Positions 8,567 through 58,552 of a stretch of DNA of 64,000 nucleotides are shown piece after piece. Every line of letters starts with the position of its first letter. The first letter of the stretch is position 1. Source of the DNA: Pseudomonadota bacterium (GTDB lineage Bacteria; Verrucomicrobiota; Verrucomicrobiia; Limisphaerales; SXTU01); assembly GCA_009922615.1 (NCBI GenBank), contig RFVF01000004.1:1-64000 (forward strand), written 5' to 3'. A program made the position numbers and the translations under genes. The notes beneath the pieces are model-generated. The model was not told the DNA's origin. It did not search any database and saw only the letters and a list, made by a program, of their open reading frames with translations.

Positions 8567-8619
8567 GAACTTCGTGTTTGGAGCTTCGTTGGAACTTGGA
8601 GCTTGGGATTCGGAGCTTC
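8567..8619 (+). repeat. degenerate heptanucleotide repeat tract between ABC ATPase and permease genes
   Basis: The gap holds a run that reads in seven-base steps as GAACTTC, GTGTTTG, GAGCTTC, (GTTG), GAACTTG, GAGCTTG, GGATTCG, GAGCTTC. Related AAGCTCC/CAAGCTT words extend left to about 8490. It ends five bases ahead of the permease start codon. It is one of five heptamer tracts in the window. Confidence 0.75.
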
Positions 8620-8623
8620 GCCC

Positions 8624-9823
8624 ATGACGCTACCACTCATCGTTGCCAAGTCCCTCCGCCAGCACCTTCTTTCCACGGTGGTGACGGCGGCGTCCATCGC
8701 GCTTGCGGGCGGGCTACTCATGGCAGTGTGGGTGGTCAAGACACAGTCCAACGACGCCTTCACCAAGCAGAATGCCGGCTTCGACGCTGTTCTAGGCGCA
8801 CGCAGCGCGAAGCTCCAGCTCGTGCTCAACGCGATTTTTCACCTCGAAGCCTCACCGGGAAATTTGCCGTGGGCCGATTACGAAGACATCGCGAAAAACC
8901 CCGCCGTCACGCTCGCTCTGCCCATCGCCGTGGGAGACAACTACCACGGCTATCGGTTGGTTGGCACAACGACGAATCTATTTTCGGTTGAACTTGCGCC
9001 GGGGCGCAAATATCGCGTTGCCGAGGGTGAACCTTTTCTCGCGGGCTACATGGAGGCGGTGCTGGGCAGTTTTACAGCGCAGCAGCTCAAGCTCAAGGTG
9101 GGCGACAAATTCCATCCGTTCCACGGTCTCATCTTCGACGAAAAGCAGCAGCACGCGGAGACCTACGTCGTCACCGGCATCATGGAGCCGTCGAACACGC
9201 CCGCCGACCGCGTCATCTGGATTCCGCTCGAAGGCATCCAGAACATGAAGGGCCACGACGCCAAGAGCGCCGCCGAGATCAGCGCCGTGCTGGTGAAGCT
9301 CAAGAACCCCATCGCCGGGCGCGGGCTGGAGCTGATGTATAACAAGCAGGGTAACCGGCTGACCTTCGCCTGGCCCATCGCGCAGGTCGTTGCCGAGTTG
9401 TTCGGCAAGATCGCATGGTTCGACAAGGTGCTGGAGCTGGTGGCGTGGCTCGTCGCCGCCGTGGCGACCGGCTCGGTGCTCGCGAGCATTTACAACTCCA
9501 TGAACGAACGTCGCCGCGACATCGCAATCCTGCGGGCACTGGGCGCGCGGGCGCACACTATCTTCTTGGCCGTTGTGCTGGAGTGCGCAGCCATCGCGGT
9601 GCTGGGGATGCTCGCGGCGTTCGCGGTCTATCTCGGCATCACGGGCGTGGCCGCGCATATCATCCGCACGGAGACCGGCGTGGTCCTGAATGCGTTCGCA
9701 TGGCATCCGATCCTGGCGTGGGCACCAGCGACGATGATTGGCCTGAGCGCGCTGGCTGGCGTTATTCCAGCGATGAAAGCCTATCGCACGAACGTGGCGG
9801 AGAACTTGGTGCCGGTGTCGTAG
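8624..9823 (+). CDS. ABC transporter permease, FtsX/MacB fold
   Basis: 399 residues. Start chosen at the ATG of [14 protein letters not shown]; the open frame from 8564 would translate the heptamer tract. The layout is typical of FtsX/MacB permeases: one N-terminal membrane helix (about 20-38), a long periplasmic domain (about 40-270), then three C-terminal helices (about 285-390). The conserved [19 protein letters not shown] loop contacts the ATPase. It forms the transporter with the ATPase encoded just upstream. Cargo is not evident. Confidence 0.88.
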
Positions 9824-9870
9824 GCGCGCCGGGTATTACTCGGCTTCTAGGGAGTTCGCTCGGCGCTTCG

Positions 9871-10911
9871 CTACGGCCTCAACCACTTCTCGAACCAATC
9901 AATCGCTGCTTGCCGTGCCTCGACGGTGACCTTGTGACCAGTTTGTGGTTGGAGAATGACCTGCAGTTTCGGTTCGGCATCGGCGGCGCGGTAGGCCGAG
10001 CGCGCGGCGGCGAGACACTCGTTGACCCCGGGCAACGGCGTGCGCGGATCCGCGTCACCGTTGATGACGAGCAGTGGTCGAGGGGCGATGAGTGGCAACA
10101 TCGCCGGGCCGTCGAACTCGCCGTAGATGCCAGGCACCACGCGGTCGTAGAAGCGCCGGACAAATGCTGCGCTCACCATTTCGCCCTCGTCCTTGGCCGC
10201 CGCTTCGATCGCTGGTTTGAATGTCTCCACCCGCGAGCGCCAGCTCTCATTGTCCAGCGCCCACCTGAAGCTCTGCACGCCGATGCACGGCACCACGACG
10301 GCGATGCGCGGGTCAGCGGCTGCGGCGAGATAGCCTTCCATGCCACCCTTTGAGAAACCGATAAGGCCGATTCGCGCGGCATCTACGTCGTTACACGTGC
10401 CCAGATAATCCACGAGGCGCATCACGTCCCAGGCCGTGTCGTAGAGGAAGGGAAGTTTCCGGCTGCCGAACCACGCGTTGAGGATCGCCTCGTGATACTC
10501 GGCGGAACCGTTGCCCGCCTTGGTGCGCGCGCCGTGGTGCCGACCATCGATCGCGACCGCGAGGAAGCCACGTTTGGCCAGATCGTGCAGCAACGGCAAC
10601 TGGCTTTCCTTGTTCGCGCCGGTCCCGTGCAAAACGATCACCACCGGCCGTCGCCCCGTGGTTTCGTTACGCTTCATCAACAGTCCGGGAACCCGCACAT
10701 TTGCCTCAGAGGCGAAGGAAAACTGCACGGCCCGCAGACCGTTCGTGGCAGCGGGCGCTTTGATCTCGGGGGCCAATTCAACACGCGGACGGTCGAGCAG
10801 TTTGAGGAAGGCGGCTCGGGTATTGGCCGGGGCGTCAACTCCCAGTGTGCGGTTCACGAGAAAGAACAGGGCCAAGCCCGTCATCAAGCTACTGACAGGC
10901 CGCATCTTCAT
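9871..10911 (-). CDS. secreted alpha/beta hydrolase (dienelactone hydrolase-like)
   Basis: 346 residues with an N-terminal signal peptide (about 1-25). Alpha/beta hydrolase fold: oxyanion strand VVIVLHGTGANK, nucleophile elbow GFSKGG (S187), acid GDADPRTPLPG and a C-terminal histidine in QPQTGHKVT. The ATG overlaps the stop of the upstream DUF1501 gene (ATGA type), so translation is likely coupled. It is the last gene of the PSD1-DUF1501 operon, which points to a periplasmic role with those proteins, for example deacylating or de-esterifying a carbohydrate. That role is inference. Confidence 0.85.
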   Translation of the reverse strand: MKMRPVSSLMTGLALFFLVNRTLGVDAPANTRAAFLKLLDRPRVELAPEIKAPAATNGLRAVQFSFASEANVRVPGLLMKRNETTGRRPVVIVLHGTGANKESQLPLLHDLAKRGFLAVAIDGRHHGARTKAGNGSAEYHEAILNAWFGSRKLPFLYDTAWDVMRLVDYLGTCNDVDAARIGLIGFSKGGMEGYLAAAADPRIAVVVPCIGVQSFRWALDNESWRSRVETFKPAIEAAAKDEGEMVSAAFVRRFYDRVVPGIYGEFDGPAMLPLIAPRPLLVINGDADPRTPLPGVNECLAAARSAYRAADAEPKLQVILQPQTGHKVTVEARQAAIDWFEKWLRP

Positions 10912-12332: not shown

Positions 12333-12335
12333 GGA

Positions 12336-15300
12336 TCAATCAACGTAAACAAATTCATTGGCGTTCAGCAGCACGTGGCAGAAGTCGGCCAGGGCGGCGG
12401 CGCGGGTCGTGGCAGCGGATTTGGCGGCGGTGGTTGTGTTAAACTGCAGATCGTTGGCGTGCTTTGAAGCGTCCTTGAAAGCGCTCGGCTTGGTCTCGAA
12501 CTGCCACAGCCCGAGGGTCTGGTCCGTGGCGCGCGCGTCGCCACCGAGCAGCAAATCCGCCTGTGTCAGTGTGCCCGTGCTCAGGCGCACATCGTCGATC
12601 ATCCCATCGAAGCCGCCCGATTTGCCGCTGCGACCGCCGAGGTTCAGTGGCAGAGCATTTGCGAACCCGCCGATGATTTTGTGCGGCACCTTGGCCAGCG
12701 ACAATGGTTCGTCGTCGTTCGCCAGATCCTTCACGTAGAAGGTCACTTCGCCGGGCACGCCGGGCTTGGCGAGTTTTACCGACGCGGCGACGTAGTAGGG
12801 CTTGCCGGTCGCGAGTGAATGATCGGAGAAAATCGCTTCCTCGCCAAAGCTGCCGTCGGTCTTGGTGCCGATAATCTGGAGCACCAGGGTCTGCGGTTTG
12901 CGCCGTGAGCCTTTGCCGGTGATGGCGAAACCCCAGCCGGGTTTCTTCGCATCGCCGCTCCACTTTGCGGCGATCGTTCGCACCATCGCTCCGCTGTCCA
13001 CGGAGCGCACCAGCACGCACGCTTCGAGCGTGAAATCCTCCAGCGCCAACGAGGGATTATCTGGCACCGTGAGCGTCTCACCGCCCATCTCGGGGGAAAT
13101 AACCGCCGCCATGCCGTCGCGATACGGCATCTTCTCGGCTGCAAACACCGCGCTGGATGCGGGTTTCGTGCCGATCCGCAGGCTTTGGCTTTGCATGAAT
13201 TGCAACGCAGCGGCGCGTTCGTTCGGGCGCGGTTCGCGGCTGAAGGCGAGGCGATACGCGGCGTTGACCATCTCTTCGTCGCTGCTGGGATTTTCCTGTT
13301 CCAATCGCGCGGCGAAGGTCTTGGCGTGGCGCAACATCATCTGGCTGTTGAAGAGTAGCAGCGCCTGGGGCGGTGTGGTGGTGACGTTGCGCTGGGCCAC
13401 GCTGTTGAAAGATTCCGCAAGGTCAAAGACGTTGAGCAATGGGTCGGGCGAATTGCGCATCAACTTGCTGTAGATGGAGCGGCGCGGCGTGAGAAAATCC
13501 GTGCTCGGCCCGCCTGCGGGTTCCAGCTTCAGCTCGCCGGTGACGGCCAGCACCGCATCGCGAATCTGCTCGGCTTCGAGGCGGCGTGTGGGGAAACGCC
13601 AGAGGAGGCGGTTTTCTGGATCAGTCTGCTGGGCGCGGGCAAATTCCGGACTTCGAGCTCCGAGCTCTGAATTCGCGGAACTCTGCCGATACGTCGCGCT
13701 CGTGACCATCAGCCGATGCATCGCTTTCAGGCTCCAGCCCTTTTCCACAAACGTCGCCGCCAGCCAGTCCAGCAGCTCGGGATGTGTTGGTTGTTCGCCC
13801 AGCTTGCCGAAGTCGCTGGCATTGGCGGCGAGGCCACGACCGAAGTGCCATTGCCAGAGCCGGTTTACCATCACGCGGGCGGTGAGCGGGTTTTCGGGCG
13901 AAGTGAGCCAGCGGGAAAGTTCGCTGCGACGACCGGTGGAATGGGGCAGGGGGGTGATCTTTGCCGGGCCTGGATCAAGCACGGTCAGATAACCCGGCTC
14001 GATCGGTTCCTTGGTCTTGCCTTTGGGCAGATAGGTGGGCGGCGCAACGGGGCCGACATCGGTGGCCCCGAAGAGCGGAGTGAGTGGCTTGGGCTTGAGG
14101 GCGTCGAATTCGGTGAGCTTTTTGCGGATCGCCACCACGCGCTCCTTGGCATCGCCTTTGAGCTTCGCATCCAGTTTGTCGAACTCATACGTCACCTGCC
14201 GGTAGGCCAGTTCGGCGATCTGGTGCTGGTAGGGCGTGCGTTGCGCAATCGGGGTGTTCAAATCTTCGCGGATGTCTTCAATGAATTTTTCGACCGCACC
14301 TTTCAACGCGCTGCGTTTGACTGGCTCCAAGAGCTTCTCCAATTCGGCCCGCAAATCAGCCGTGGCAGCTTCCCACTTCGCCAGTTTGGCTTGGTATTCG
14401 GCCTTCTCCTCGGGCGTGGCCAAGGGAATGTCTTCTCGCGGCAGCAGCGGAGCGAGGAAGGCCTGCAACCGGTAATAATCCTTCTGAAGAATGGGGTCGA
14501 ACTTGTGATCGTGGCAGCGCGCACATTGGAGGCCGACCCCCATGAACGCATCGGCAGTCGTGTCGGTGATGTCTTCGAGGATGCGTTGCCACTGGCCGCG
14601 CACATCGCGATTGTTGTATTCGTAAATGCCGTTGCGGAAGTAGCTCGTGGCGGCGAGCGCTTCGGGGTTTGCGGGAAACAGTTCATCGCCCGCGAGCTGC
14701 TCTTTCACGAACAGGTCGTAGGGCTTGTCCGCGTTAAACGACCGGACGACGTAATCGCGATATCGCCACGCATGCGCGCGAAAGTCATCAGCCTTGTAGC
14801 CGTCCGATTCGGCGAAGCGCACGAGGTCCAACCAGTGACGCGCCCACTTCTCGCCATAGCGGGGGCTGGCCAACAGCTTCTCCACCAGCCGTTCGTAAGC
14901 GTCGGCGGCTTTGTCGGCGAGAAACTGGTCCAGCTCGAACGGAGTGGGCGGCAAGCCGGTCAAGTCGAAGTAAAGCCGGCGGACGAGCGTGGCGCGCTGG
15001 GCGGGGGGAGATACGGCGAGGTTGGCCGAAGTCAGCTTTTGCTGGATAAACGCATCAATGGGGTTGCCCGAGGTCGCCGCGCGGTTGCCGGGTGTTGGGA
15101 CGGCCGGTTTGCGCAAGGGCTGAAAAGCCCACCATTGACGGTCTTCATCCGTGATTTTTCCGCGTCGAACTACACGGTTTTCGCCGGGGGGCATCGGTGC
15201 GCCAGACTTTACCCACTGTTCCAAGACGGCGATTTGTTCGGCGGAGAGGCGCTTGTTCTTCGGCGGCATTTGGAGGTCCGCGTCAGTGTAACGCACCGCC

Positions 15301-15581
15301 TTGATGAGCAAACTCTTCTCCAAATCTCCCGGCACTACGGCGGGACCGGTGTCGCCGCCCTTGAGGACTGCTGCGGTGGAATCCAGCGCCAGCCCGCCCT
15401 TGAACTTCTTCGCCTCGTGGCTGTGACATTCGAAACAAGCTGCAGCCAGCAACGGCCGGACCGATTGCTCATAGAACGCAAGGTCCCCGATGGCAGCCTT
15501 GACGGTGGCGGCGCGCCCGATTGGCACGGCACAAACAAGTAGGGCTGAAAGCAGCAGCGCTGGTGGAGACAGTCGTTTCAT
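12336..15581 (-). CDS. PSD1/DUF1549/DUF1553 planctomycete-type cytochrome c protein with LamG-like C-terminus
   Basis: 1,081 residues. Start is the ATG of MKRLSPPALLLSALL (a GTG lies 10 codons upstream); signal peptide follows. An N-terminal cytochrome domain carries heme motif CFECH with a later MPPKNK Met ligand region. DUF1549 holds a second CxxCH (CARCHDHKFDP), and DUF1553 follows (LTARVMVNRLWQWHFGRGL). The last about 230 residues (LEDFTLEACVLVRS to GLWQF) look like a concanavalin/LamG jelly roll that may bind glycans. About 12 extra residues (NSELGARSPEFA) encoded by a heptamer tract interrupt DUF1553. First gene of the operon with DUF1501 and the hydrolase. Confidence 0.92.
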   Translation of the reverse strand: MKRLSPPALLLSALLVCAVPIGRAATVKAAIGDLAFYEQSVRPLLAAACFECHSHEAKKFKGGLALDSTAAVLKGGDTGPAVVPGDLEKSLLIKAVRYTDADLQMPPKNKRLSAEQIAVLEQWVKSGAPMPPGENRVVRRGKITDEDRQWWAFQPLRKPAVPTPGNRAATSGNPIDAFIQQKLTSANLAVSPPAQRATLVRRLYFDLTGLPPTPFELDQFLADKAADAYERLVEKLLASPRYGEKWARHWLDLVRFAESDGYKADDFRAHAWRYRDYVVRSFNADKPYDLFVKEQLAGDELFPANPEALAATSYFRNGIYEYNNRDVRGQWQRILEDITDTTADAFMGVGLQCARCHDHKFDPILQKDYYRLQAFLAPLLPREDIPLATPEEKAEYQAKLAKWEAATADLRAELEKLLEPVKRSALKGAVEKFIEDIREDLNTPIAQRTPYQHQIAELAYRQVTYEFDKLDAKLKGDAKERVVAIRKKLTEFDALKPKPLTPLFGATDVGPVAPPTYLPKGKTKEPIEPGYLTVLDPGPAKITPLPHSTGRRSELSRWLTSPENPLTARVMVNRLWQWHFGRGLAANASDFGKLGEQPTHPELLDWLAATFVEKGWSLKAMHRLMVTSATYRQSSANSELGARSPEFARAQQTDPENRLLWRFPTRRLEAEQIRDAVLAVTGELKLEPAGGPSTDFLTPRRSIYSKLMRNSPDPLLNVFDLAESFNSVAQRNVTTTPPQALLLFNSQMMLRHAKTFAARLEQENPSSDEEMVNAAYRLAFSREPRPNERAAALQFMQSQSLRIGTKPASSAVFAAEKMPYRDGMAAVISPEMGGETLTVPDNPSLALEDFTLEACVLVRSVDSGAMVRTIAAKWSGDAKKPGWGFAITGKGSRRKPQTLVLQIIGTKTDGSFGEEAIFSDHSLATGKPYYVAASVKLAKPGVPGEVTFYVKDLANDDEPLSLAKVPHKIIGGFANALPLNLGGRSGKSGGFDGMIDDVRLSTGTLTQADLLLGGDARATDQTLGLWQFETKPSAFKDASKHANDLQFNTTTAAKSAATTRAAALADFCHVLLNANEFVYVD
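13644..13671 (+). repeat. degenerate heptamer tract inside the PSD1 gene
   Basis: Four seven-base units, TTCCGGA, CTTCGAG, CTCCGAG and CTCTGAA, lie within the coding sequence. They encode the run SELGARSPE that is absent at the matching point of the second PSD1 protein of this window (ATYRQTSVATKEQ). Confidence 0.7.
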
Positions 15582-15715
15582 CGCGGATGTTTGACGCCCA
15601 CGAGTATGCACAGGATTCGCCAGGTGTCAGCAGCTCTTTGGGCTGCTTTCGGGACATGGGCAGTCCTGTTTCCGGAGGCGGATGATCCGGACTGGGTGAA
15701 GTAAAATCGATGATG

Positions 15716-15730
15716 TCTTAATTTTTAAGA
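15716..15730. promoter_or_regulatory. candidate operator upstream of the MarR gene
   Basis: A perfect inverted repeat TCTTAA-TTT-TTAAGA is centred about 48 bp before the MarR start, in the AT-rich divergent region between the PSD1 operon and the MarR-transporter-acyltransferase operon. MarR proteins commonly bind such palindromes in their own promoters. Function inferred from position and symmetry only. Confidence 0.5.
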
Positions 15731-15770
15731 ATGATGACACATAGACAATCGCCTGCTAAACCATGCGCCG

Positions 15771-16235: not shown

Positions 16236-16241
16236 ACCCCC

Positions 16242-17501: not shown

Positions 17502-17536
17502 TCTTTCTCATAGCCTTAAACATCCTTCGCGCCAGC

Positions 17537-19678
17537 ATGAAATCCATCCTCCGTCTCCTCGTCCGCCTCCTCTTCCGCTTTCGCGCGTTCAACGAGTCTG
17601 CGCTCCGCACGCCCGGGCCGGTGTTGCTCATCCCGAACCACACCTCCTGGTTCGACTGGCTGTTCATCGGCGTGTGCCTGGACAGTGACTGGAAGTTCGT
17701 CACGTCCTCGACCACTGCGCAGAAATCCTGGTTTCATAAGTTCGTGATGGTCAACTCCCGCACGTTTCCCATCGACAACGCCTCGCCCTACGCGGTGAAG
17801 CACATGGCGGAATTCCTCTCCAAGGGCGGCAAGCTCGTGCTCTTCGCGGAAGGCCGGCTTTCGCGCACGGGGACATTGATGAAGCTTTTTGACGGCACCG
17901 GCTTTCTCATTCACAAGACCCATGCCAAAGTCATCACTGCCTATTTGCGTGGCGCGCAACGCCTGCCCTTCTCCCCCAATGCCGGCTGGAAGCGGTGCTT
18001 TCCCAAAGTCACCGCTCATTTCAGCGACCTGCTCTCCGCGCCCCACGAGGAGCACCTGAGCACCTCGCAGAGCCGCGCGCTGTTCACCCGCTGGCTCCGG
18101 GACCAGATGGTGGGACAGCAGTTCAATACGGAAATGGACTTCGGCCCGGACAGCATCCCCGCCGCCATCATGCGAGCCGCGTCGGACGAGCCGGGCAAGG
18201 TCATCCTGGAGGACGCGACACAGACGAAACTTACCTATCGCGAACTCCTCATCGGCGCGCAACTCATGGGCAGTCGCATCGCGCAAGCCACCACCTCGGC
18301 AGCCTCCAGTCCACCGCGCATCGGCGTCCTGCTGCCCAACGTCAACGCCACCCCTGTCGTCCTCCTCGCCCTCTGGCAGCTCGGCAAAGTCCCGGCCATC
18401 CTCAACTACTCCACCGGCACCGCCACGATGCTCGCCTGCACTGAACTAGCCGGGCTGAAGCACATCGTCACCTCGCGCGCCTTCATAAAGCGCGCCAAGC
18501 TGGACGCCGCGCCATTCGAGCAAGCTGGCGTGAAGCTCATCTACCTCGAAGACCTCCGCGCCACCATCAGCAGCCTCGACAAGTTCATCGCGTTGCTCGG
18601 TAGCTTCTTCAACTTTCAACTTTCAACTTTCAACTCCCACACCGACACCGCTGTCATCCTTTTCACCAGCGGTTCGGAAGGTGTCCCCAAAGGCGTCGAG
18701 CTGACCCACCGCAATCTCCTCGCCAACGTTCGACAACTCCTCGCCAAGTGCGACCTCCTCGACGGCGACCGATTCTTCAACGCCATGCCGCTGTTCCATA
18801 GTTTCGGTCTCACCGCCGGGCTGGTGCTGCCGCTGGTGCGTGGTAACTACATCTTCATCTATCCCTCGCCCTTGCACTACCGTGTCGTGCCCACCGTCTT
18901 CTACGACCGCGACTGCACGGTGCTCTTCGGCACCAACACCTTCCTCAGCGGCTATGGCCGCAAGGCTCATCCCTACGACTTCCGTAGTCTTCGTTACCTC
19001 TTTGCCGGGGCGGAGAAGCTCCAGCAAGCCACCGCCGAACTCTGGGCGCAGAAGTTTGGCGTCCGCGTCTTTGAAGGTTATGGCGCGACCGAGTGCAGTC
19101 CGTGCATCAGCGCGACCACCCCGCTTGAACCAAAGCACGGCACCGCCGGCCGCTTCCTGCCGGGCGTCGAGCACAAGCTCGAACCCGTGGATGGCGTGGC
19201 CGAAGGCGGTCGGCTTTTTGTCCGCGGCCCCAACATCATGAAGGGCTACCTCAATGCCGATGCAAACGCCAAGTTCCATGCCGGCGGCGGCTGGTATGAC
19301 ACCGGCGACATCGTCAGCGTGGATGCCGAGGGCTTCGTGAGCATTCGCGGACGCATGAAACGCTTCGCCAAGATCAGCGGCGAAATGGTCAGCCTCACCG
19401 CCGTCGAGGACGCCCTGGCCGGGGCCTTCCCGCACTACGGCCTCCGCTGCGCCACTGCTGTCGTGACCCGTCCCGACGAGGACAAGGGCGAAGCCCTCAT
19501 CTGCTGCACCAACGAGCCGAAGCTCACCCTCGCAGAGATTCGCGAAGCCATTAAAGCCAAAGGCCTCAGCAACCTCTGCGTGCCCAAGGAAATAGCCGTC
19601 GTGAAAGAAATCCCCAAGCTCGGCACCGGCAAGGTGAACCACCGGGAGCTCCACGCGATGGTCCAGCCCGCTAAATGA
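17537..19678 (+). CDS. Aas-like acyltransferase / acyl-ACP synthetase fusion
   Basis: 713 residues with two domains. Residues about 1-200 form a PlsC acyltransferase with the HxxxxD box (NHTSWFDWLF) and the substrate motif FAEGRLSRTG. Residues about 215-710 form an AMP-binding synthetase with P-loop FTSGSEGVPKGVELTHRN, GYGATECSP and YDTGDIV; the C-terminal lysine region is KLGTGKVNHREL. Aas re-acylates 2-acyl-lysophospholipid at the inner membrane. A four-fold heptamer tract (TTTCAAC) encodes an extra FNFQLSTFNSH just before the P-loop. Follows the LplT-like gene by 35 bp. Confidence 0.9.
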   Translation: MKSILRLLVRLLFRFRAFNESALRTPGPVLLIPNHTSWFDWLFIGVCLDSDWKFVTSSTTAQKSWFHKFVMVNSRTFPIDNASPYAVKHMAEFLSKGGKLVLFAEGRLSRTGTLMKLFDGTGFLIHKTHAKVITAYLRGAQRLPFSPNAGWKRCFPKVTAHFSDLLSAPHEEHLSTSQSRALFTRWLRDQMVGQQFNTEMDFGPDSIPAAIMRAASDEPGKVILEDATQTKLTYRELLIGAQLMGSRIAQATTSAASSPPRIGVLLPNVNATPVVLLALWQLGKVPAILNYSTGTATMLACTELAGLKHIVTSRAFIKRAKLDAAPFEQAGVKLIYLEDLRATISSLDKFIALLGSFFNFQLSTFNSHTDTAVILFTSGSEGVPKGVELTHRNLLANVRQLLAKCDLLDGDRFFNAMPLFHSFGLTAGLVLPLVRGNYIFIYPSPLHYRVVPTVFYDRDCTVLFGTNTFLSGYGRKAHPYDFRSLRYLFAGAEKLQQATAELWAQKFGVRVFEGYGATECSPCISATTPLEPKHGTAGRFLPGVEHKLEPVDGVAEGGRLFVRGPNIMKGYLNADANAKFHAGGGWYDTGDIVSVDAEGFVSIRGRMKRFAKISGEMVSLTAVEDALAGAFPHYGLRCATAVVTRPDEDKGEALICCTNEPKLTLAEIREAIKAKGLSNLCVPKEIAVVKEIPKLGTGKVNHRELHAMVQPAK
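18607..18634 (+). repeat. perfect heptanucleotide tandem repeat (TTTCAAC x4) inside the Aas-like gene
   Basis: Units CTTCAAC, TTTCAAC, TTTCAAC, TTTCAAC are contiguous within the coding frame, in the linker just ahead of the AMP-binding P-loop. Because seven is not a multiple of three, gain or loss of one unit would shift the frame. Confidence 0.9.
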
Positions 19679-36001: not shown

Positions 36002-36253
36002 TCAAATAAACAGCCATGGAATAGATGTGAACAGGCAGACTTGTCATCTGAACAGCCAGCGATGAGTTATTGCTAGACGGACTTGGCGTGTAATCACCAA
36101 GTAGCTACTTATCAATAGACAGAACTGTCCTCTAATCAGGCACCGATGGCTTGTCACTAGCCAGACTTGTCCTGTAATCAGGCAGCGACGGCTTAATGCT
36201 AGACAGAACCGTCCTGTATTCAGTTAGCGATGACTTAATGCTAGACAGAATTG
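36002..36253. repeat. 42-bp tandem repeat array, six degenerate units
   Basis: Six head-to-tail units of exactly 42 bp begin at 36002, 36044, 36086, 36128, 36170 and 36212. A seventh partial unit starts at 36254, and a weaker one may precede the array. Unit landmarks are TCCTGTAATCAGGCAGCGA and TGCTAGACAGAACTG. Unit junctions carry GACAGAACTGTC (36118-36129, perfect 5-bp arms), GACAGAACCGTC (36202) and GACAGAATTGTC (36244). The array is much richer in AT than its surroundings. It fills the 577-bp gap between the Rieske and winged-helix genes. Confidence 0.88.
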
Positions 36254-36511
36254 TCCTGTTTTTAGACAATAAAACACCGATTTCATATGAATTTAGGCTG
36301 TTTTTTACGATTGATGGCGTAAATCCAAGCTGCGAACTGGCATGGCTGCAACTGGGCACTCAGAGCACACCGGGAGTTGGCTGAAGGAAACTCCGCTCGG
36401 AGAGCAAGGGAGTCTGCCTCAACCGGTTTCGACTCGGTTGCTCGGGGTTCTGGGCAGACCTGCGCGGCGCAAGCTCGGAGGTTGGGTTCAATTAATGAAA
36501 GGATTCATATT

Positions 36512-42436: not shown

Positions 42437-42441
42437 GCCGG

Positions 42442-47341: not shown

Positions 47342-50300
47342 TCACTTCGCATCCCCGACCGTCACGCGCAACTCCGCGCCGTTGCAGCGGATTTCGGGGA
47401 CATACATCGCGTGGCCCAACACTGGCAGCGCGTGGAAAACGCCGGGGACTTCCGCACGCATCTCGTAGCGGAGCTGCCAGACGCCTTCGGGGAGCTTGTC
47501 GAGGAAGAGGGCCACCTTGCGGTCGCGCAGCTCCTGATAGACCCAACGATCGCGGCCGGTGAAGTCGGGCTCACCGATGCCGATGGGCCGGGGCAGGGCG
47601 ATGCCAACAGGGCGCGCAGCGGCCAGACGAGCGGCCGGCGCTCCGGGGGCAATCGCGATGGCTGGCTCGGCTACCGCCACCTCCGCAGCGACCGCTGGCA
47701 CCGCCGCCCCGACTTTGGACTTCGGACCCTTGGACTTTGGACTCTTCGCGGGCGCGGGCGCCGGCGCAGGCTTCCCGACTTCCCCAAACTTCCGCTCCAC
47801 CGCGCCGCTCTTCAGCTCACGCGCATACAGCGATTCACCGCTGCGGACGGCCACGGCCTCGAAGCCGGCGGGCTTCAGGTCCTCGAAGAGCAAATACTCG
47901 TAGTTATTTTTCGCCTCGATGGTCAGGACGGTCTCGATGCGCTCGCCGCTCTTCACGGACTCGCCATCGAGCAGCGGCACCTTGTCGTAGAGCAGGCCCT
48001 TGAGCAGGGTGGGGCGGCCCACCAGCTTGAAGTATTCGCGCTTCACGAAAATCTCGTTGCCGCTCGGAGGGATGGGCTCTTCCAGACTGAAGAACTTGGC
48101 TTCGGCGGCGAAGTAAACCGGCCCCTCGCCCTTGCGCCGGATGCGGATGTCGTTCGCGCCGTCCTTGATGAGCTTGGTGTCAACGGCGAAGCGGCTGGGC
48201 GCAGCGAAGACCTCCGCGCCGCTGACCTTGCGCTTGGCGATGCTCGTGCCGTTCACGGTCACCTCGTATTCCAACTCGGGTGACAGTTCCTTGGTCACGC
48301 GCAAGTAGTCGTTGAGCGCGAGCACGGTGATGGCGGTGTCGCTGGTGTTGCTCCACTGCGCGCCGCGCCGGCCCTTGAGCAGCCAGTTGGTGACGGGCTC
48401 GATGAGCTTGTTCTGCGGGTCAATCGCCAGCAACGCGCGGAGGGCGAAGGCCGTCGCCTCCACGCCGCCGTCGGACCAGCGCCAGTAAATGCCGTCCTCG
48501 CCCCAATGCGCGGTGCCCATCACGCCGGCGTTCGCGGGCAACTGGCCGTCGATGAGCACGCTGGCGTCGGGCCGCTCGTCGCGCTTCACGCCGTTCTCCA
48601 GGTTCGCGATGAGCGTCTTGGCCTCCGCCGCCTTGCCGAAGTGGTGCGCGGCGAGCGCGAGGAGGGCGCGAGTGTAAGCGTTCAGGACCTCACGGTTTTT
48701 CCACAGGTTGTCCCACGCTTTGGTCTGGAATTGGGAAAGTCCGGCCTGCTTCGCGTCCGCGCGTTGCTCAGCGAGCGCGTGCAGCATGAAGGCCTGCATG
48801 TCGTGGTTCAGTTCTTCCTCGACGAGTGTCTTGTCGAGGAACGCCGCGGCGCGCTCCAGCACGTTGGCTTTCAGCGCCACGCCGGATTGCTTCGCGAGCG
48901 TGAGGCCCCACACGACGTAGGCGGTCATCCAACGGTCGCTCTGACCTTCCTTCCACCAGCCCCAGCCGCCGTCGCCGTGCTGGAAGTCGTAGAGGCGCTT
49001 CAAGCCGGCGTCGGTCATTTCGTTCAGCTTGGACAGGTCTTTCTTCACGCCAAGGTTCGGCGGGGCGGCACCACCAGCACGAGCTTCAATGCCGCCGAAT
49101 ACGCGGCTCATCACGTCCTCGGGCTGAAGGCCCAGGTCTTTCAACGTCCTCGCCGTGACCACCGACGGCAGAAAGCGGCTCATGGTCTGCTCAGTGCAGC
49201 CGTAGGGGTAATCAATCAGGTAGGGCAGGGCGTCGAGCATCGTGACCGCGAGGCTGGGCGCGACCTGCACGACGAGCGTGGTGGTGTCCTTCTTGCGCGC
49301 GGCGGGGATGTCGAGCCGCACGGTGATGTCAGAGCCGCGCACCTTGCCGGCCTTGGTGAGGAAGCGCTCGATGCCGTGCTCGTGGACGGGATAGGTCTTC
49401 TCCATTGCGTCGCTGAACTTGCCGCCGACGGCTGTGGTCTTGAGCCAAACTTCGCCGGGCGTCACGACGCGGGCCTTCCAGTCGGCGCGTCCTTCGGAGT
49501 TGGGCGGAACCTTCAAGACCACGTCGCGCCCCCTTACCCCGGCCCTCTCCCCCGATGCGGGCGAGGGAGGTAGAAAAGTCAGCCCGGAGCCACCGGCTTC
49601 AAGCGAAACTTTCACGTCGAGCGGTTGGTCGGTGTTATTGTTCACCACCGCACTCAAGACAACTTCATCGCCGACGACGAAGAAGCGCGGGGCCTGCAGT
49701 CGCACGATGAGCGGCTGCTTCGTGCGCGTGGTGGTGTTCGCGATGCCGAACTGCGCGCCGCTGCCGACCGCGCGGGCGGTGGCCTTCCAGCCGGTGAGCG
49801 TGTCGGGATACTTCACCGGCACGCGCGCGGTGCCGTCTGCGCCGGTCTTCACATCCGGCAGCCAGGTGATGGTGGAGCGGAAGTCGGTGCGGACGACGAC
49901 GTTTGGTTCCTCGTCGCCTTCGCCAGCAGCTTGCTTGTCGCCCTTGGCCTTCTCGTCGCGAAGCATTACCTTCGGCATTGGTGCCGGGGCAGCAGCGAGT
50001 GCCACCGCATCCATCGCGACGGCTCCGACCGGCGCACTCATCGGCATGGCCAACCCCCGCATCCGGTTCGCATTCGCGCCGCCACCGAAGGCCGCCTGTT
50101 CCTCCCGCGCCATGCCGGACTTTCGCAGTTCCTGCAAATCCCCTTTGTCGCTCTCTCCCTCGAAGGCCCAGTTCTTCCGCCGGTCGGCACGTTCGAGCGC
50201 GTCGCTCTGCTCCAGCACCATCTTTACGCCGTCCTCCTCCCACTCCACGAGCTTCGCGTAGGACTTCTGGTTGAACGTGCTCTGCGTCTGCGTCCGCTGC

Positions 50301-52381
50301 TGGCGCTTCGTGCCGAAGTAGAACTGCCGCGGGTCGCCCGCGTAGTCGCTCTGGATGTAATAGACCGACTCGTCCACCAGCCCCACCGCCACTTCGGCGG
50401 CGACGGGCTTGCCCTCGTGGTCGCGCGCGGTCACGAGCAACGTTCCCTCCTCGCGCGGCTGGTATTGGGCGCGGTCGGGCTTTACGTCCACGGTGAGGAA
50501 ATGCTTCGTGGGCGGCACGATGACTTGCTTCGTGTCCAGGTGAACCTGTTTGTCCGCAACCATCGCGGCGCTGAGGAAGACGTTCGGCACATGCTCGTCG
50601 CTGAGTTGAAGTTCGACCAACTTCACCGTGCCCGTGAGATGCACCACCTGATGGCTGATAAGCTCCTCGGCCTCGACCGTGAAGAGCACGTAACGGTCGT
50701 TGCTGTTCGCCACGAGCATGACCGGAGCCTTCTGCCCGCTGCGGAAAGTGTCGCGGTCCACGATGATTTCCACGCCGCCGTGCCGGTAGCCGAGTTCGGC
50801 GGTCACGTTGTTCGCGACCCACAGCGTCGTCTCCGCGCGGATGGGCTGCGGTGGGCGATTGGGAAAGGCGTCTTCCGTGAGCCAGGTGACTTTGTAATAG
50901 CCCTCGCGCTCAGGCGTGAAGACCAAGTCCACCTTGCCCTCGGCGTCGGTCTTGAGCGTGCGCGTGAGTATGTCGTCGCTGTGGTAGCCACGGAATTTTA
51001 GCCGCCACGGACGCTGGCCCACTTGCGGCGGGGGCGGAAACTTCCCGTCGGACTGAAGCGCCTTCAGCTCCGGCCCCTTCACTTCCTTGCCGGCGGGGTT
51101 CACCCAGATTTCCTCCCAATACTCGCGCGTGACCTTGACGATGCCCGCGATGACGGCGGGCTGCTCGTTCGCGTCCTGCGCGCGGAAGTTCACCGTCGCC
51201 TTGTCGCCGGGCTTGTGGAGGTTGTGCTCCGGCTTGGCGTGGACGTAGTAGCGCTGGCGCGTGACGCGCACGGTGCCGCTGCCGGTGATTTCGCGGCGAC
51301 TGGCATCCACCACGCGCGCCTCGATGCGGAACTCGAAGTCCTGCCCGTAATCCTTTGGCGACTCGAACTCCAGCGTCGCCTTGCCCGTCGCATCGGTCTT
51401 CAAGGTCTCGCGTTTCAAAATCTGCCCGCCCCCGCCCCCGCGCCAGTAGCGTCCACGACCGAAGCGGCCTTCGTTCTCCTCGTAGAACCAACCGAACTCA
51501 CGCGGCTCCTTCCACGCGAAGTAATACGGGTTCTGATGCACGATGACCTCGACCGTCGCGTTCGCCACCGGCCCGCCGAAGTAGTAATCCGCCTGCACGT
51601 TTACCTCCACGCGGTCGCCGGTGCGGAAGGCCTTCTTGCGCCTGCCTTCCTCGGGCGTCTGCACGGCCACCTTGAACTCCGGCAGCTTGTATTCCTCCAG
51701 CCGGAAAAGCGTCGCGCTGCCGATGTGCTGGTTGTTCGCCTTGTCGCGGAACTGCACGTGATACTCGCCGAGGCGCTGCTGCTCCGTGAGTTCGAGCGAC
51801 GCCCAGCCGGTTCCGAACTCGTTCAGCTTGAGGTCGCCTTCCTTCACCTTCGCGCCGTCCGGGCCGGTGATGGAGTAAGCAATCGTCTCGTTCGCGGGCG
51901 TGGAATAGACCGAGCCGTTGTAGCGACGAACAACCGCCTTCCACTCGACCTTCTCCTTCGGGCGATAAGCCGGGCGGTCGGTGAACGCGTAGATGCGCCA
52001 CGACTCGTGCGGCTCGCGATACCAATACGCGCTGCCAGGACTGAAGGCCTGCTTGTCGCCCGCGATGGCGCTGGCGAACAGCTCGTTGTTCGAGTTCGGC
52101 GTGCGGGTGAGCTCGAAGACGGCGAGGCCGTCCTTGTCTGTGACCTTGTCCTGCGCGCGGGACTCCCATTGGTTGTTCGCGACGTGCCAGCGCTCCCAGA
52201 TGCGGGCCTTTGCCTTGGGCAACGGCTTGCCCGAAAGCGCGTCGGTGACGAAGACGAGTGCCTGCTTGCCGCTCGCCTTGAGCACCAGCGCGGCGTCGGT
52301 CACCAGCACCAGTTCGCGCGCGGACTGCCCGCCGCCCTGCGCGTGCAGCACGTAGGCCCCGGGCCGCAGCTTGCCGTCCAC
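47342..52381 (-). CDS. alpha-2-macroglobulin family protein, main body (frameshifted from its N-terminus)
   Basis: About 1,679 residues. Contains MG-type beta-sandwich domains (YAFTDRPAYRPKEKVEWKAVV), a Gly/Ala/Met-rich linker that may be the protease bait region (about residues 820-880), the pre-thioester A2M block and the thioester motif CTEQ (YGCTEQTMSRF, about 1058), then the alpha/alpha toroid and a receptor-like C-terminus. Bacterial A2Ms trap foreign proteases in the periplasm. This ORF begins at a GTG inside a domain, with no ribosome site, so it is the continuation of the upstream 53459 gene after a frameshift. A GC-rich palindrome and a heptamer tract lie inside it. Confidence 0.88.
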   Translation of the reverse strand: MDGKLRPGAYVLHAQGGGQSARELVLVTDAALVLKASGKQALVFVTDALSGKPLPKAKARIWERWHVANNQWESRAQDKVTDKDGLAVFELTRTPNSNNELFASAIAGDKQAFSPGSAYWYREPHESWRIYAFTDRPAYRPKEKVEWKAVVRRYNGSVYSTPANETIAYSITGPDGAKVKEGDLKLNEFGTGWASLELTEQQRLGEYHVQFRDKANNQHIGSATLFRLEEYKLPEFKVAVQTPEEGRRKKAFRTGDRVEVNVQADYYFGGPVANATVEVIVHQNPYYFAWKEPREFGWFYEENEGRFGRGRYWRGGGGGQILKRETLKTDATGKATLEFESPKDYGQDFEFRIEARVVDASRREITGSGTVRVTRQRYYVHAKPEHNLHKPGDKATVNFRAQDANEQPAVIAGIVKVTREYWEEIWVNPAGKEVKGPELKALQSDGKFPPPPQVGQRPWRLKFRGYHSDDILTRTLKTDAEGKVDLVFTPEREGYYKVTWLTEDAFPNRPPQPIRAETTLWVANNVTAELGYRHGGVEIIVDRDTFRSGQKAPVMLVANSNDRYVLFTVEAEELISHQVVHLTGTVKLVELQLSDEHVPNVFLSAAMVADKQVHLDTKQVIVPPTKHFLTVDVKPDRAQYQPREEGTLLVTARDHEGKPVAAEVAVGLVDESVYYIQSDYAGDPRQFYFGTKRQQRTQTQSTFNQKSYAKLVEWEEDGVKMVLEQSDALERADRRKNWAFEGESDKGDLQELRKSGMAREEQAAFGGGANANRMRGLAMPMSAPVGAVAMDAVALAAAPAPMPKVMLRDEKAKGDKQAAGEGDEEPNVVVRTDFRSTITWLPDVKTGADGTARVPVKYPDTLTGWKATARAVGSGAQFGIANTTTRTKQPLIVRLQAPRFFVVGDEVVLSAVVNNNTDQPLDVKVSLEAGGSGLTFLPPSPASGERAGVRGRDVVLKVPPNSEGRADWKARVVTPGEVWLKTTAVGGKFSDAMEKTYPVHEHGIERFLTKAGKVRGSDITVRLDIPAARKKDTTTLVVQVAPSLAVTMLDALPYLIDYPYGCTEQTMSRFLPSVVTARTLKDLGLQPEDVMSRVFGGIEARAGGAAPPNLGVKKDLSKLNEMTDAGLKRLYDFQHGDGGWGWWKEGQSDRWMTAYVVWGLTLAKQSGVALKANVLERAAAFLDKTLVEEELNHDMQAFMLHALAEQRADAKQAGLSQFQTKAWDNLWKNREVLNAYTRALLALAAHHFGKAAEAKTLIANLENGVKRDERPDASVLIDGQLPANAGVMGTAHWGEDGIYWRWSDGGVEATAFALRALLAIDPQNKLIEPVTNWLLKGRRGAQWSNTSDTAITVLALNDYLRVTKELSPELEYEVTVNGTSIAKRKVSGAEVFAAPSRFAVDTKLIKDGANDIRIRRKGEGPVYFAAEAKFFSLEEPIPPSGNEIFVKREYFKLVGRPTLLKGLLYDKVPLLDGESVKSGERIETVLTIEAKNNYEYLLFEDLKPAGFEAVAVRSGESLYARELKSGAVERKFGEVGKPAPAPAPAKSPKSKGPKSKVGAAVPAVAAEVAVAEPAIAIAPGAPAARLAAARPVGIALPRPIGIGEPDFTGRDRWVYQELRDRKVALFLDKLPEGVWQLRYEMRAEVPGVFHALPVLGHAMYVPEIRCNGAELRVTVGDAK
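47714..47742 (+). repeat. degenerate heptamer tract inside the alpha-2-macroglobulin gene
   Basis: Units TTTGGAC, TTCGGAC, CCTTGGAC (8 bp) and TTTGGAC are contiguous and encode a Lys/Ser/Pro-rich stretch (KSPKSKGPKSKV) in an Ala/Pro linker near the C-terminus. Confidence 0.72.
49529..49571. repeat. GC-rich palindromic (REP-like) element inside the alpha-2-macroglobulin gene
   Basis: CCCCCTTACCCCGGCCCTC then TCCCCCGATGCGGGCGAGGGAGG matches the intergenic elements at 21.6 and 36.9-37.0 kb. It is read in frame as FLPPSPASGERAGVRGR and interrupts an otherwise normal strand-rich region. Confidence 0.75.
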
Positions 52382-52399
52382 GCGCGGCGAGGCGTTGCC

Positions 52400-53459: not shown

Positions 53460-53607
53460 AGCGGCAGGTTAGACGGTGCGTTCAGGAAAACACTCCCGAA
53501 ATGGCTGGCGGAGGCAGCGAGGTTTTTATTTCGCAACTGTTCCCTTGGCTTTGGTAGCTTCCCCGTCGTCGCACAGCGCAAAACGTTCCATGTCCGGACA
53601 GGTCGTC

Positions 53608-54879: not shown

Positions 54880-54954
54880 GCGGCACACGAATGGTCCCCG
54901 CCGTGGCGTTTACTGCGAGCCTTGCGGACGAAAGCGTTCGCGCTTCCGAACCCA

Positions 54955-55992: not shown

Positions 55993-56014
55993 AAAGGTTT
56001 TGGCACCGGTTCGC

Positions 56015-56809: not shown

Positions 56810-56817
56810 AACTCTGC

Positions 56818-57333
56818 ATGAAGCCCGTCGATTTGTTTCGTCACTGCCCGCAGTGTGGCCAGCCCGCGCAGAACGTGGGGCGTGCCCCGTTCCATTGCGA
56901 TGCCTGTGGTTTTCTCTTCTACTTCAATCCCGCCATTGCCGTTGGCGCGCTGCTCATCGCGCCGGATGACACGCTCTTGTTGGTGCGACGCGCGAAGGAT
57001 CCGCATCGCGACAAGCTCACGGTGCCAGGTGGATTTGTGGATGCCGGTGAGATCGCTGAGGACGCGCTGCGACGTGAAATCCGCGAGGAGGTGGCGATGG
57101 AAGTGGAAGGCCTCGACTACTTTTGCTCGCTGCCCAACACCTATCACTATCGCGGTGTGACGTATCAGGTGCTGGATTTCTTTTTTGTGGTCCGCGTGAA
57201 TTCCAAGACGGCGCGGGCAGAAGCTGCGGAGGTGAGCGAGATTTGCTGGCGCAAGGCAGAGCAAATCAAGCTTGAGGAAATCGCCTTTGATTCCGTGCGT
57301 GAAGCGATGCGCCGCTTTCTCCTCCGCCGGTGA
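56818..57333 (+). CDS. NUDIX hydrolase with N-terminal zinc ribbon
   Basis: 171 residues. Zinc ribbon CPQCG...CDACG (10-30), then the NUDIX domain with box GGFVDAGEIAEDALRREIREEV. The zinc ribbon plus NUDIX layout is that of small NADH/ADP-ribose-type pyrophosphatases, but NudC's SQPWPFPxS signature is absent, so the substrate is open. It starts eight bases after deoC, suggesting co-transcription of two nucleotide-salvage functions. Confidence 0.9.
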   Translation: MKPVDLFRHCPQCGQPAQNVGRAPFHCDACGFLFYFNPAIAVGALLIAPDDTLLLVRRAKDPHRDKLTVPGGFVDAGEIAEDALRREIREEVAMEVEGLDYFCSLPNTYHYRGVTYQVLDFFFVVRVNSKTARAEAAEVSEICWRKAEQIKLEEIAFDSVREAMRRFLLRR

Positions 57334-57340
57334 GGAGCGC

Positions 57341-58489
57341 CTACGACTTGGGCGGCGGCGGGCCGTTGCGCACGCAACGGAAGCCGGTGTGATTGAGGCC
57401 CGTGTCCGGCGAAGTCTTCATGCGCATGGCGGGGCGGTAGCCCCAGCAGTAGGCCTCGGTGCAGAGATACGAGCCGCCGCGCGTGATGCGTTTCCAGACA
57501 CCGGGTTCGTTCGGATCGTAGCTCTCCTGCGGGCCTTGCGGATTGGCCTTGGGACTCTTCGCATAGTAGTCGGGCAGATACCAGTCGCTCGTCCACTCCC
57601 ACACGTTCCCCGCCATGTCGTAGAGGCCGTAGTCATTGGGAGGGAAACTTCCCACAGGGGACTGTGATTTGAAGCCGTCCTGAAGCGTGTTCCCATTGGG
57701 AAACTTGCCCTGCCAGAAGTTCGCCATCCACTTGCCGTCGGGGGTTTTCTCGTTGCCCCAGATGTAAGTGAGTTTTTCCTTGCCGCCGCGCGCCGCGAAT
57801 TCCCACTCGGCCTCCGTGGGCAGCCGCTTGCCGGCCCACTTCGCGTAGGCCACGGCATCGAACCACGCCACATGCACCACCGGGTGCTTCTCGCGGCCCA
57901 CGATCGTGGAGTCCGGCCCCTCAGGATGCCGCCAGTTCGCGCCGGGCACGTAACGCCACCATGCCATGTGATTGTGCAACGGCACGTCGCCTGGCGGCGG
58001 GGTGAAGACGATCGAGCCCGGAACGAGCGCCTCGGGCGGCGCCTCGGGGAAATCTTCCTGTTTGGGTTTGCGCTCGGCGATGGTCACGTAGCCGGTGGCC
58101 TTGATGAACTTCTCGAACTCGGCATTGGTGAGCTCATATTTGTCCATCCAGAAACCATCCACTGTGACCTCGTGGACGGGCTTTTCATCTGGCTGGCCTT
58201 CCTCGGAACCCATCTGGAACGTGCCGCCGGGAATCCATACCATGCCGTTGGTCCACGACAGGTCGTTCGGATTTTGCTTCGCGGTCGAAGCGGAGGATTC
58301 GGTTGGTTTCGGCTCAACCACCGCGTGGCCCAGGCCCTTCGGGGCATCGTAGCGCGTGGCGTAATCCTTCGCTGACTTGCGAGCGAGCAACGGCGAGATC
58401 AACGCGACCAGGCCGACCACCACGACGAGGGCGAGCACGAACTTCCACGGACTGACTTGGTGCGGATTCGGTTCAGGCGGTTTGCTCAT
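57341..58489 (-). CDS. formylglycine-generating enzyme (SUMF1) family protein
   Basis: 382 residues from the ATG of MSKPPEPNPHQVSPW, with one membrane helix (about 18-36). FGE/SUMF1 domain from about 80: [49 protein letters not shown], and RGGSYLCTEAYCWGYRPAMR. The C-x4-C pair matches the copper-binding catalytic cysteines of aerobic FGE, which convert sulfatase Cys/Ser to formylglycine. This makes it a likely true sulfatase-activating enzyme, unlike the cysteine-less copy at 37132. No sulfatase gene is in the window. Confidence 0.92.
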   Translation of the reverse strand: MSKPPEPNPHQVSPWKFVLALVVVVGLVALISPLLARKSAKDYATRYDAPKGLGHAVVEPKPTESSASTAKQNPNDLSWTNGMVWIPGGTFQMGSEEGQPDEKPVHEVTVDGFWMDKYELTNAEFEKFIKATGYVTIAERKPKQEDFPEAPPEALVPGSIVFTPPPGDVPLHNHMAWWRYVPGANWRHPEGPDSTIVGREKHPVVHVAWFDAVAYAKWAGKRLPTEAEWEFAARGGKEKLTYIWGNEKTPDGKWMANFWQGKFPNGNTLQDGFKSQSPVGSFPPNDYGLYDMAGNVWEWTSDWYLPDYYAKSPKANPQGPQESYDPNEPGVWKRITRGGSYLCTEAYCWGYRPAMRMKTSPDTGLNHTGFRCVRNGPPPPKS

Positions 58490-58531
58490 GGGTGCCAAGA
58501 TTGCGTCGGCACAGCATGAGAGACGAAGACG

Positions 58532-58552
58532 AAAGGCAAAAGGTAAAAGGTA
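58532..58552 (+). repeat. heptanucleotide repeat AAAGGTA x3 upstream of the FGE gene
   Basis: Units AAAGGCA, AAAGGTA, AAAGGTA are contiguous in the 106-bp gap between the FGE and WYL-regulator genes. Same seven-base period as the four other tracts. Confidence 0.8.

What the first reader, a model, noticed from the sequence alone, without database searches (positions are those of the whole stretch)
8567..58552. Heptanucleotide (STRR-like) repeats at five loci, three read in-frame inside genes
Seven-base tandem runs occur at 8567-8619, 13644-13671, 18607-18634, 47714-47742 and 58532-58552. Unit families differ (GAGCTTC, CTTCGAG, TTTCAAC, TTTGGAC, AAAGGTA) but share period and style. Three lie in coding sequence and add short linkers in PSD1, the Aas-like enzyme and A2M. 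Heptameric STRR repeats are known from heterocystous cyanobacteria; a family like this in Verrucomicrobiota, colonising genes in frame, may be undescribed.
Basis: partly seen in the sequence, partly recalled or inferred. Interest (0 to 1): 0.75.

Follow-up and report, generated by a model that had tools for sequence, protein, structure and literature searches.

The report
Seven-base repeat hairpins between and inside genes
This bacterium's genome is sprinkled with short runs of seven-base repeats, some arranged as hairpins, that sit between genes and as extra loops inside conserved enzymes, and related species often carry them at the same spots with a different repeated word.

Summary
In ~1 Mb of the window's own genome, period 7 is the commonest tandem period: 72 segments, against 38 (period 14), 24 (period 6) and 0 in each of five shuffles. 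In the window, 18608-18635 and 58526-58554 are clean arrays; the other three are degenerate, but relatives show they are real sites.

44 of 76 arrays lie wholly inside predicted genes, among them PheS, PheT, RecG, QueA, XseA and a MurG-like gene. At eleven sites followed through relatives, arrays sit in variable loops or gene junctions, and at several the unit differs between species. Some arrays come as inverted pairs. At four such sites tested without hand selection, the two arms match better within a species than between species (clear at PSD1 and RecG, weaker at two). Units follow a restricted grammar. One unit occurs in records of about thirteen phyla.

Best reading: a local mutational process with a 7-nt step (slippage plus fold-back copying) writes these arrays, and selection keeps those encoding tolerable polar linkers. 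Heptamer repeats are known from cyanobacteria, Xanthomonas and Beggiatoaceae; the in-gene abundance, paired arms and unit switching at fixed sites appear new. The mechanism is inferred.

The parts
8488..8622 (+). Spacer between an ABC ATPase gene (7810-8478) and a MacB/FtsX-like permease gene (ATG at 8624); two arms of TTGGAGC-type heptamers in opposite orientation (left about 8496-8530, right 8560-8618)
   Evidence: DNA fold z -2.24, 6 of 200 shuffles as good. In G007-G010 the ATPase stop lies 1 nt before the permease ATG; G005 has a longer hairpin of the same unit, G002 one of GGTCATT units, G004 ATTCCGC units.
13646..13680 (-). Degenerate heptamer tract in the loop ATYRQ...DPENR of a PSCyt/PSD1 protein (CDS 12336-15611)
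   Evidence: Six of 14 relatives' sequences at this loop have paired heptamer arms with three different unit types; others are shorter.
18608..18635 (+). Exact array, 4.0 x TTCAACT, encoding FNFQLSTFNS just before the TSGSEGVPKG motif of an Aas-like enzyme (CDS 17537-19678)
   Evidence: Orthologues carry arrays of other units at the same codons.
47711..47743 (-). AGTCCAA-type interrupted array encoding SPKSKGPKSKV in a linker near the C-terminus of an alpha-2-macroglobulin (CDS 47342-52381)
   Evidence: The same unit type in the genus; at score >=10 4 of 10 same-genus rows and 0 of 3 others.
58526..58554 (-). AAAGGTA/AAAGGCA array between a WYL-domain gene (58596-59609) and an FGE-sulfatase gene, with a short partly complementary arm (AAAGGTAATCAGC, about 58580-58592)
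   Evidence: Fold z -1.22, 22 of 200 shuffles as good, so hairpin not significant here.

Best explanation
These are locally generated heptamer arrays, some of them heptamer-stem hairpins. Proposed steps: (1) inferred: during replication or repair, strand slippage in 7-nt steps lengthens a tract; (2) inferred: where the nascent strand folds back on itself, sliding by one unit and refilling copies the same unit into the opposite arm, so the arms carry and change the unit together; (3) shown: the products have a restricted sequence grammar and recur at tolerant places, namely gene junctions and variable loops of conserved proteins; (4) partly shown: selection filters them in genes, since inserts keep the frame, the sense cycle is mostly stop-free and the encoded peptide tends to be polar; (5) shown as a pattern, cause inferred: orthologous sites keep an array while its unit changes, or the array is absent or replaced. 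The most likely effect on the cell is none or mild: disordered linkers and untranslated spacers rather than regulatory devices.
For: Period-7 excess. Restricted grammar: 69% of 42 distinct units are one purine block plus one pyrimidine block, against 30% of background 7-mers; 66 same-unit pairs against a mean of 4.5, maximum 13 of 200 draws. Inverted partners within 150 nt for 9 of 37 arrays. Different units at the same site in relatives. Arms match within more than between species: PSD1 14.9 vs 8.5 (6 of 5040 permutations as good), RecG 10.5 vs 6.7 (8 of 20000), Aas second site 13.1 vs 9.4 (317 of 20000), permease junction 29.2 vs 14.6 (2 of 24); single-arm control sites 17675 and 1155 of 20000. 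Where both strands are open, the sense peptide is the more hydrophilic in 22 of 29 (p=0.008). No Y1 transposase in the genome. Mixed copies within arrays fit slippage plus point mutation.
Against: 28 of 37 arrays have no inverted partner at p<0.02, and only 1 of 73 TCAACTY seed arrays in other bacteria had one (control positions came from the same heptamer-rich loci). The same few units recur at unrelated loci and in distant phyla, which plain local slippage does not predict and a copied element would. Arm matching does not tell in-place change from independent insertion at one tolerant site. Coding arrays at one site keep nearly constant length, which slippage alone would not give without selection on frame. 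No within-species variation was seen, because one genome per species is held.
Confidence: 0.5

Rival explanations
1. A mobile, non-autonomous hairpin family (MITE-, REP- or Rickettsia-palindromic-element-like) that inserts whole and then diverges, or is replaced by another member through recombination.
For: Precise presence or absence at orthologous junctions and loops. Same units at unrelated loci. A shared outer segment (GCGAAAGGGCGCAGAGAAC type) around three intergenic heptamer tracts, L041, L045 and L046. G004 and G012, from different families, share GAGTCGA units at both the PSD1 and RecG sites.
Against: Flank comparison of the 76 arrays found, beyond overlapping neighbours, heptamer tracts and a few homologous gene segments, no common flank apart from that small group. 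No Y1 transposase (other transposase families were not searched). No target duplication seen by eye at the filled and empty sites. Many arrays are single-armed.
Confidence: 0.22
2. Plain 7-nt slippage of local sequence arising many times independently at tolerant sites, with no fold-back copying; paired arms are incidental.
For: Single-armed arrays are common. Heptamers are the most abundant 5-11 nt repeats in most genomes and slippage was proposed for them by Mrazek et al. 2007, as cited in PMC4679880 (Introduction).
Against: Arm matching within species. Non-random unit repertoire. RecG hairpin folds far better than shuffles, z -4.84.
Confidence: 0.2
3. Selected regulatory or structural elements, such as RNA hairpins or protein-binding heptamers near start codons, as suggested for TAACTGA in Beggiatoaceae.
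For: In 8 of 32 intergenic or edge arrays the array ends within 10 nt of a predicted start (starts are from a crude gene caller). Higher density between genes, 352 against 48.6 per Mb.
Against: 44 of 76 arrays are inside predicted genes. Units differ between species at one site and several species have none there.
Confidence: 0.05

Closest known systems
Long simple sequence repeats with 7-nt units (Mrazek et al. 2007, as cited in PMC4679880 and PMC4692102; original not seen)
   Same: Tandem 7-nt excess in a bacterial genome; slippage proposed.
   Different: There, multiples of three were said to be commonest in coding regions; here over half of the heptamer arrays are in predicted genes, some are paired in inverted orientation, and the unit differs between species at one site.
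Cyanobacterial heptanucleotide repeats (STRR of Calothrix; Nostoc GGGGA(C/T)T) and Xanthomonas GGGAATC (PMC4692102, passages read)
   Same: Period 7, degenerate copies, many loci, purine-rich strand.
   Different: Different units; mostly intergenic and G-quadruplex-prone there.
TAACTGA repeats of Beggiatoaceae, Cyanobacteria and Bacteroidetes (PMC4679880, Introduction and passages read)
   Same: Period 7, often just before start codons, some within ORFs, scattered phyla; a TAACTGA-like array occurs at L034:11204-11234.
   Different: One unit, related heptamers rarely or never repeated, one inverted case in 170 sets; here dozens of units, many inside genes.
Rickettsia palindromic elements (seen only in search listings; details recalled)
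   Same: Hairpin DNA inserted in frame inside protein genes.
   Different: Those are sequence families; here there is no shared sequence, only a shared period and grammar.
Tandem repeats of archaeal Borg elements (PMC9879509, start of abstract seen)
   Same: Fast-evolving, independently arising tandem repeats that make disordered regions in proteins.
   Different: Extrachromosomal archaeal elements; here bacterial chromosomes, 7-nt units, some inverted arms.

Membership tests
Long simple sequence repeats of the 5-11 nt class | Tandem tracts longer or more frequent than expected for the genome | tested here: met
   72 period-7 segments, 0 in each of five shuffles at score >=12.
Long simple sequence repeats of the 5-11 nt class | Copy-number variation within a species | not testable with these tools
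   One genome per species is held.
Cyanobacterial STRR / Nostoc and Xanthomonas G-rich heptamers | Unit sequence GGGGA(C/T)T or GGGAATC | tested here: not met
   Units quoted in PMC4692102 are absent from the consensus units of my 76 arrays. The three Calothrix units were not seen and not compared.
TAACTGA repeats (Beggiatoaceae) | TAACTGA as the dominant unit | tested here: not met
   One array mixes ACTGAAA and ACTGATA (L034:11204-11234) among 76 arrays of many units.
REP/RAYT elements | Y1 (TnpA-REP) transposase in the genome | tested here: not met
   PF01797 search of the 92.6% complete genome: no match; rang in 5 of 14 control genomes.
Rickettsia palindromic elements | Common element sequence among copies | tested here: not met
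   All-against-all comparison of 150-nt flanks: only overlapping neighbours, heptamer tracts, a few homologous gene segments and one small intergenic group.
Rickettsia palindromic elements | In-frame residence inside protein genes | tested here: met
   44 of 76 arrays wholly inside predicted genes; four of these start within the first 8 codons and may lie before the true start.

The most novel reading that the evidence does not exclude
A widespread, unnamed bacterial process with a 7-nt ruler and a sequence grammar writes heptamer-stem hairpins into genomes across phyla and rewrites both arms together in place, continually making new polar loops in conserved proteins.
Probability: 0.3. Interest if true: 0.85.

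Novelty: new variant of a known kind. Interest (0 to 1): 0.6.

Why it matters
If right, sites that keep a heptamer array while its unit changes, with matched arms, give a handle on why seven is a favoured repeat length in bacteria. They also describe a route by which conserved enzymes such as RecG, PheT and QueA gain loops, and warn that peptides such as NSQLSTLNSQ or ESRIQNPESRIQNP are DNA-level products and not functional motifs. One unit type turns up in records of about thirteen phyla, so the process is not peculiar to this lineage.

Tried and rejected
Chance: rejected by shuffles. Conserved protein sequence: rejected, since orthologues lack or vary the tracts. Y1-transposase mobilisation: no such gene found. 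The backward-read control of the phylum scan is useless because CAAC reads the same reversed; in many genomes it scored as high as the pattern, so only raw counts are used. Longest-ORF extraction of the Aas orthologues picked wrong frames and was replaced. Regex extraction of the PSD1 loop from 30 own-genome paralogue loci recovered 5, one with a hairpin; no rate is drawn. Unit classes merge unlike units and are not used. The first arm test used rows that I picked because they looked like hairpins (PSD1 7, RecG 5, permease 3, WYL 5 of about 8 non-empty, Aas second site 6): 6/5040, 6/120, 2/6, 3/120, 43/720; one search repeats it with every orthologue above a length cut-off, except for WYL, and is the one relied on.
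Full report
What is there. The window (G000:C224, one of 331 contigs of a 5.52-Mb genome, 92.6% complete) comes from a bacterium whose PheT is 73-76% identical to that of a genome titled 'Verrucomicrobia subdivision 3' (UBA7542) and 34-44% identical to those of eight other named genomes, including Akkermansia, planctomycetes, Bacteroidetes, an acidobacterium and a cyanobacterium. Verrucomicrobiota is therefore well supported. Of the five reported tracts, 18608-18635 and 58526-58554 are clean period-7 arrays; 8560-8618, 13646-13680 and 47711-47743 are degenerate. Pfam places the three coding tracts in a PSCyt/PSD1 protein, an acyltransferase/AMP-ligase and an alpha-2-macroglobulin.

Genome-wide excess. 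I scored ungapped self-matching segments at every period from 2 to 30 in 996,751 bp: the window plus 52 unmasked stretches. At score >=12 there are 72 at period 7, 38 at 14, 24 at 6, 19 at 21, 13 at 12, 12 at 9, and 10 or fewer elsewhere. At score >=18 there are 24 at period 7, 6 at period 14 and at most 1 at the nine other periods tested; five dinucleotide shuffles gave 0 each at score >=12 and 0 to 8 at score >=10, where the real count is 88. Sampling is not fully random: 20 stretches lie on contigs with a TTTCAAC-like hit. Contigs taken by number alone (158 kb) gave 6, against 5 at period 6 and 4 at period 21, so the lead is weak there; 400 kb tiled along long contigs gave 28, against 15 at period 14 and at most 8 elsewhere.

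Units and grammar. Among 76 merged arrays the commonest units are AACTCTC (8) and AAAGTCC (6). On the 72 period-7 segments, same-unit pairs number 66, against a mean of 4.5 and a maximum of 13 in 200 background draws, and 69% of 42 distinct units consist of one purine block and one pyrimidine block, against 30% of background 7-mers. In the heptamer-bearing loci of other bacteria (seed units removed) the figures are 135 pairs against 8.7, and 51% of 76 units against 33%. The arrays are therefore not random local duplications.

Paired arms. Of 37 arrays in the first 438 kb, 9 have an inverted partner within 150 nt at p<0.02 each; 28 do not, though two merged entries hold both arms inside. Neighbouring arrays within 200 nt whose units match are inverted in 5 cases and direct in 0 (3 unmatched); in 80 loci of other bacteria 35 are inverted, 14 direct and 16 unmatched. 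Direct neighbours may have been fused by the detector, so this contrast is only indicative. Against it, 1 of 73 TCAACTY seed arrays in those loci had an inverted partner, by a test whose control positions lay in the same heptamer-rich loci. The RecG array folds far better than its shuffles (z -4.84, 0 of 200); the permease junction (-2.24) and PSD1 (-2.19) are moderate, WYL weak (-1.22), Aas (-0.43) and A2M (+0.47) none.

Inside genes. With an ad hoc gene caller (91% coding), 44 of 76 arrays are wholly inside predicted genes, 3 overlap an edge and 29 are intergenic; per Mb, 48.6 in coding and 352 in non-coding DNA. Four of the 44 start within the first 8 codons and may precede the true start, as for GlpK, whose family match begins after the array. 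Of ten array-bearing proteins scanned with NCBIfam, PheT, PheS, RecG, QueA, XseA, UbiE/MenG and GlpK pass a family cut-off; MurG and a methionine-synthase-like protein match below it; one has no confident family. In RecG the array adds residues to a loop present in solved structures 1gm5 and 9wm0. Because 7 and 3 share no factor, an array encodes the same heptapeptide cycle in every frame; only length and stops matter. In 12 of 44 coding arrays the antisense cycle has a stop and the sense one does not; in 3 the consensus sense cycle has a stop (mixed copies). Where both strands are open, the sense peptide is the more hydrophilic in 22 of 29 (p=0.008).

Same place, different word. Orthologues in up to 29 relatives (10 of the same genus) were compared at eleven sites; counts are of rows with a period-7 segment at score >=10 unless said otherwise. 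Aas loop (window 18608): 6 of 7 same-genus rows and 3 of 9 others; own TTTCAAC, G004 and G007 CTCTCAAC, G005 CAATCGG, G020 CAATCCG, at nearly constant length. PheT first loop: 6 of 11 and 1 of 18; GAATCCA, AGCGGTC, AGTGTTC, AGAATTC. PheT second loop: 6 of 11 and 0 of 18, CAATNGN units. PheS loop: own only, of 14 rows. RecG loop A: 7 of 9 and 2 of 17; GAGTCGA arms in own, G004 and G012, GTGTTGC arms in G005, CAACTCT single arrays in G001, G007 and G010. RecG loop B: among 26 rows only G020 has heptamer arrays at score >=9; others have different or no inserts. PSD1 loop (window 13646): 3 of 10 and 1 of 4, but six of the 14 rows show paired arms by eye and - GAGTCGA (G004, G012), AGTGATT (G005, G002), AGTGTTC (G001, G010) - while G007, G008, G011, G013 and G017 have 27-39 nt; the rows of G008, G011, G013 and G017 are 50-59% identical and may be paralogues. 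Aas second site: 2 of 7 and 0 of 9; own, G006 and six others have no insert, and eight genomes have inserts of tens of residues, several with G-rich and C-rich opposite arms. A2M linker: 4 of 10 (one of the ten lacks the region) and 0 of 3, one unit type. Permease junction, 14 rows: own and G005 TTGGAGC arms, G002 GGTCATT arms, G004 ATTCCGC; G001, G003 and G007-G010 have 14-21 nt. Downstream of WYL, 14 rows: AAAAGGC-type in own, G004 and G007-G010, ACTGATT/AACACTG arms in G002; no array in G001, G003 and G005, where the next gene looks different, so these are not proven empty sites.

Arms vary together. For each site I aligned the left half of every orthologue with the reverse complement of the right half of every orthologue and compared own-species with cross-species pairings, keeping all orthologues above a length cut-off. 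Within versus between: PSD1 14.9 vs 8.5 (6 of 5040 permutations as good; n=7, 7 short rows dropped, own among them); RecG A 10.5 vs 6.7 (8 of 20000; n=13, 13 dropped); Aas second site 13.1 vs 9.4 (317 of 20000; n=8, 8 dropped); permease junction 29.2 vs 14.6 (2 of 24; n=4, 8 short and 2 unplaced dropped), which is too few rows to stand alone. Single-arm control sites: Aas first loop 5.3 vs 5.7 (17675 of 20000), PheT first loop 5.1 vs 4.7 (1155 of 20000). An earlier version with hand-chosen rows agrees. Matching arms do not by themselves tell in-place turnover from independent insertion at one tolerant site. In G001, G002, G005 and G010 the PSD1 spacers between the arms look alike to my eye, which favours in-place change there; G004 and G012 look like a different element.

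Beyond this lineage. CAAYBBB repeated four times occurs in 109 of 387 genomes of the phylum, very unevenly. Many are metagenome bins, so single records may be misassigned. In those 80 loci, more than 250 nt from the seeds, period 7 leads with 119 segments against 80 (period 14), 40 (21), 26 (8) and 17 or fewer elsewhere. The loci were chosen for carrying a heptamer, so this shows variety of units, not prevalence.

What is known. Heptamers as the most abundant 5-11 nt repeats in most genomes, with the proposal that 7 nt reflects contact with the polymerase, is credited to Mrazek et al. 2007 in PMC4679880 (Introduction read; the original was not seen). Cyanobacterial and Xanthomonas heptamers: PMC4692102 (passages). 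TAACTGA repeats, with one inverted case among 170 sets: PMC4679880 (passages). Prokaryote satellites, some from heptamers: PMC6749651 (passages). I found no description of heptamer hairpins, abundant in-gene heptamers or unit switching in Verrucomicrobiota in searches (listings and starts of abstracts seen); the library lacks most subscription papers.

Mechanism and confidence. I favour slippage in 7-nt steps plus fold-back copying that keeps arms alike, filtered by selection for tolerable polar linkers (0.5). A mobile hairpin family (0.22) and plain slippage (0.2) remain open. The pattern is shown; the enzyme and the reason for seven are not.

Noticed in passing
window 36116-36259: Tandem repeat of a 42-bp unit, 3.4 copies at 79% match, in a non-coding stretch.
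   Followed up: no
L215 (G002) and L223 (G012), RecG loop B: A CCCTCTCCC/GGGAGAGGG hairpin inside the recG reading frame, resembling the triplex-type motif that PMC4666352 (passages) found always intergenic in E. coli.
   Followed up: no
L041:6230-6400, L045:4520-4720, L046:19490-19600: Three intergenic heptamer tracts share an outer inverted segment of the type GCGAAAGGGCGCAGAGAAC...CTTTCGC, perhaps a hairpin element of its own.
   Followed up: partly
L147:17018-19999: One predicted 994-aa gene holds five heptamer arrays of different units; no confident NCBIfam family.
   Followed up: no
L040:8122-10388: Short genes with arrays at their N-termini that look like type IV pilin-like prepilins (by eye, no family search); arrays in at least three neighbouring spots.
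   Followed up: no
L185 (G007) and L186 (G005), A2M linker: Beside the heptamer tract these two orthologues carry an extra stretch of about 45 residues that looks LysM-like (by eye, recalled motif).
   Followed up: no
own genome, PSCyt/PSD1 family: The window's PSD1 protein gives 168 matching stretches in the genome, a very large paralogous family; at least one paralogue (L354) has GAGTCGA arms at the equivalent loop.
   Followed up: partly
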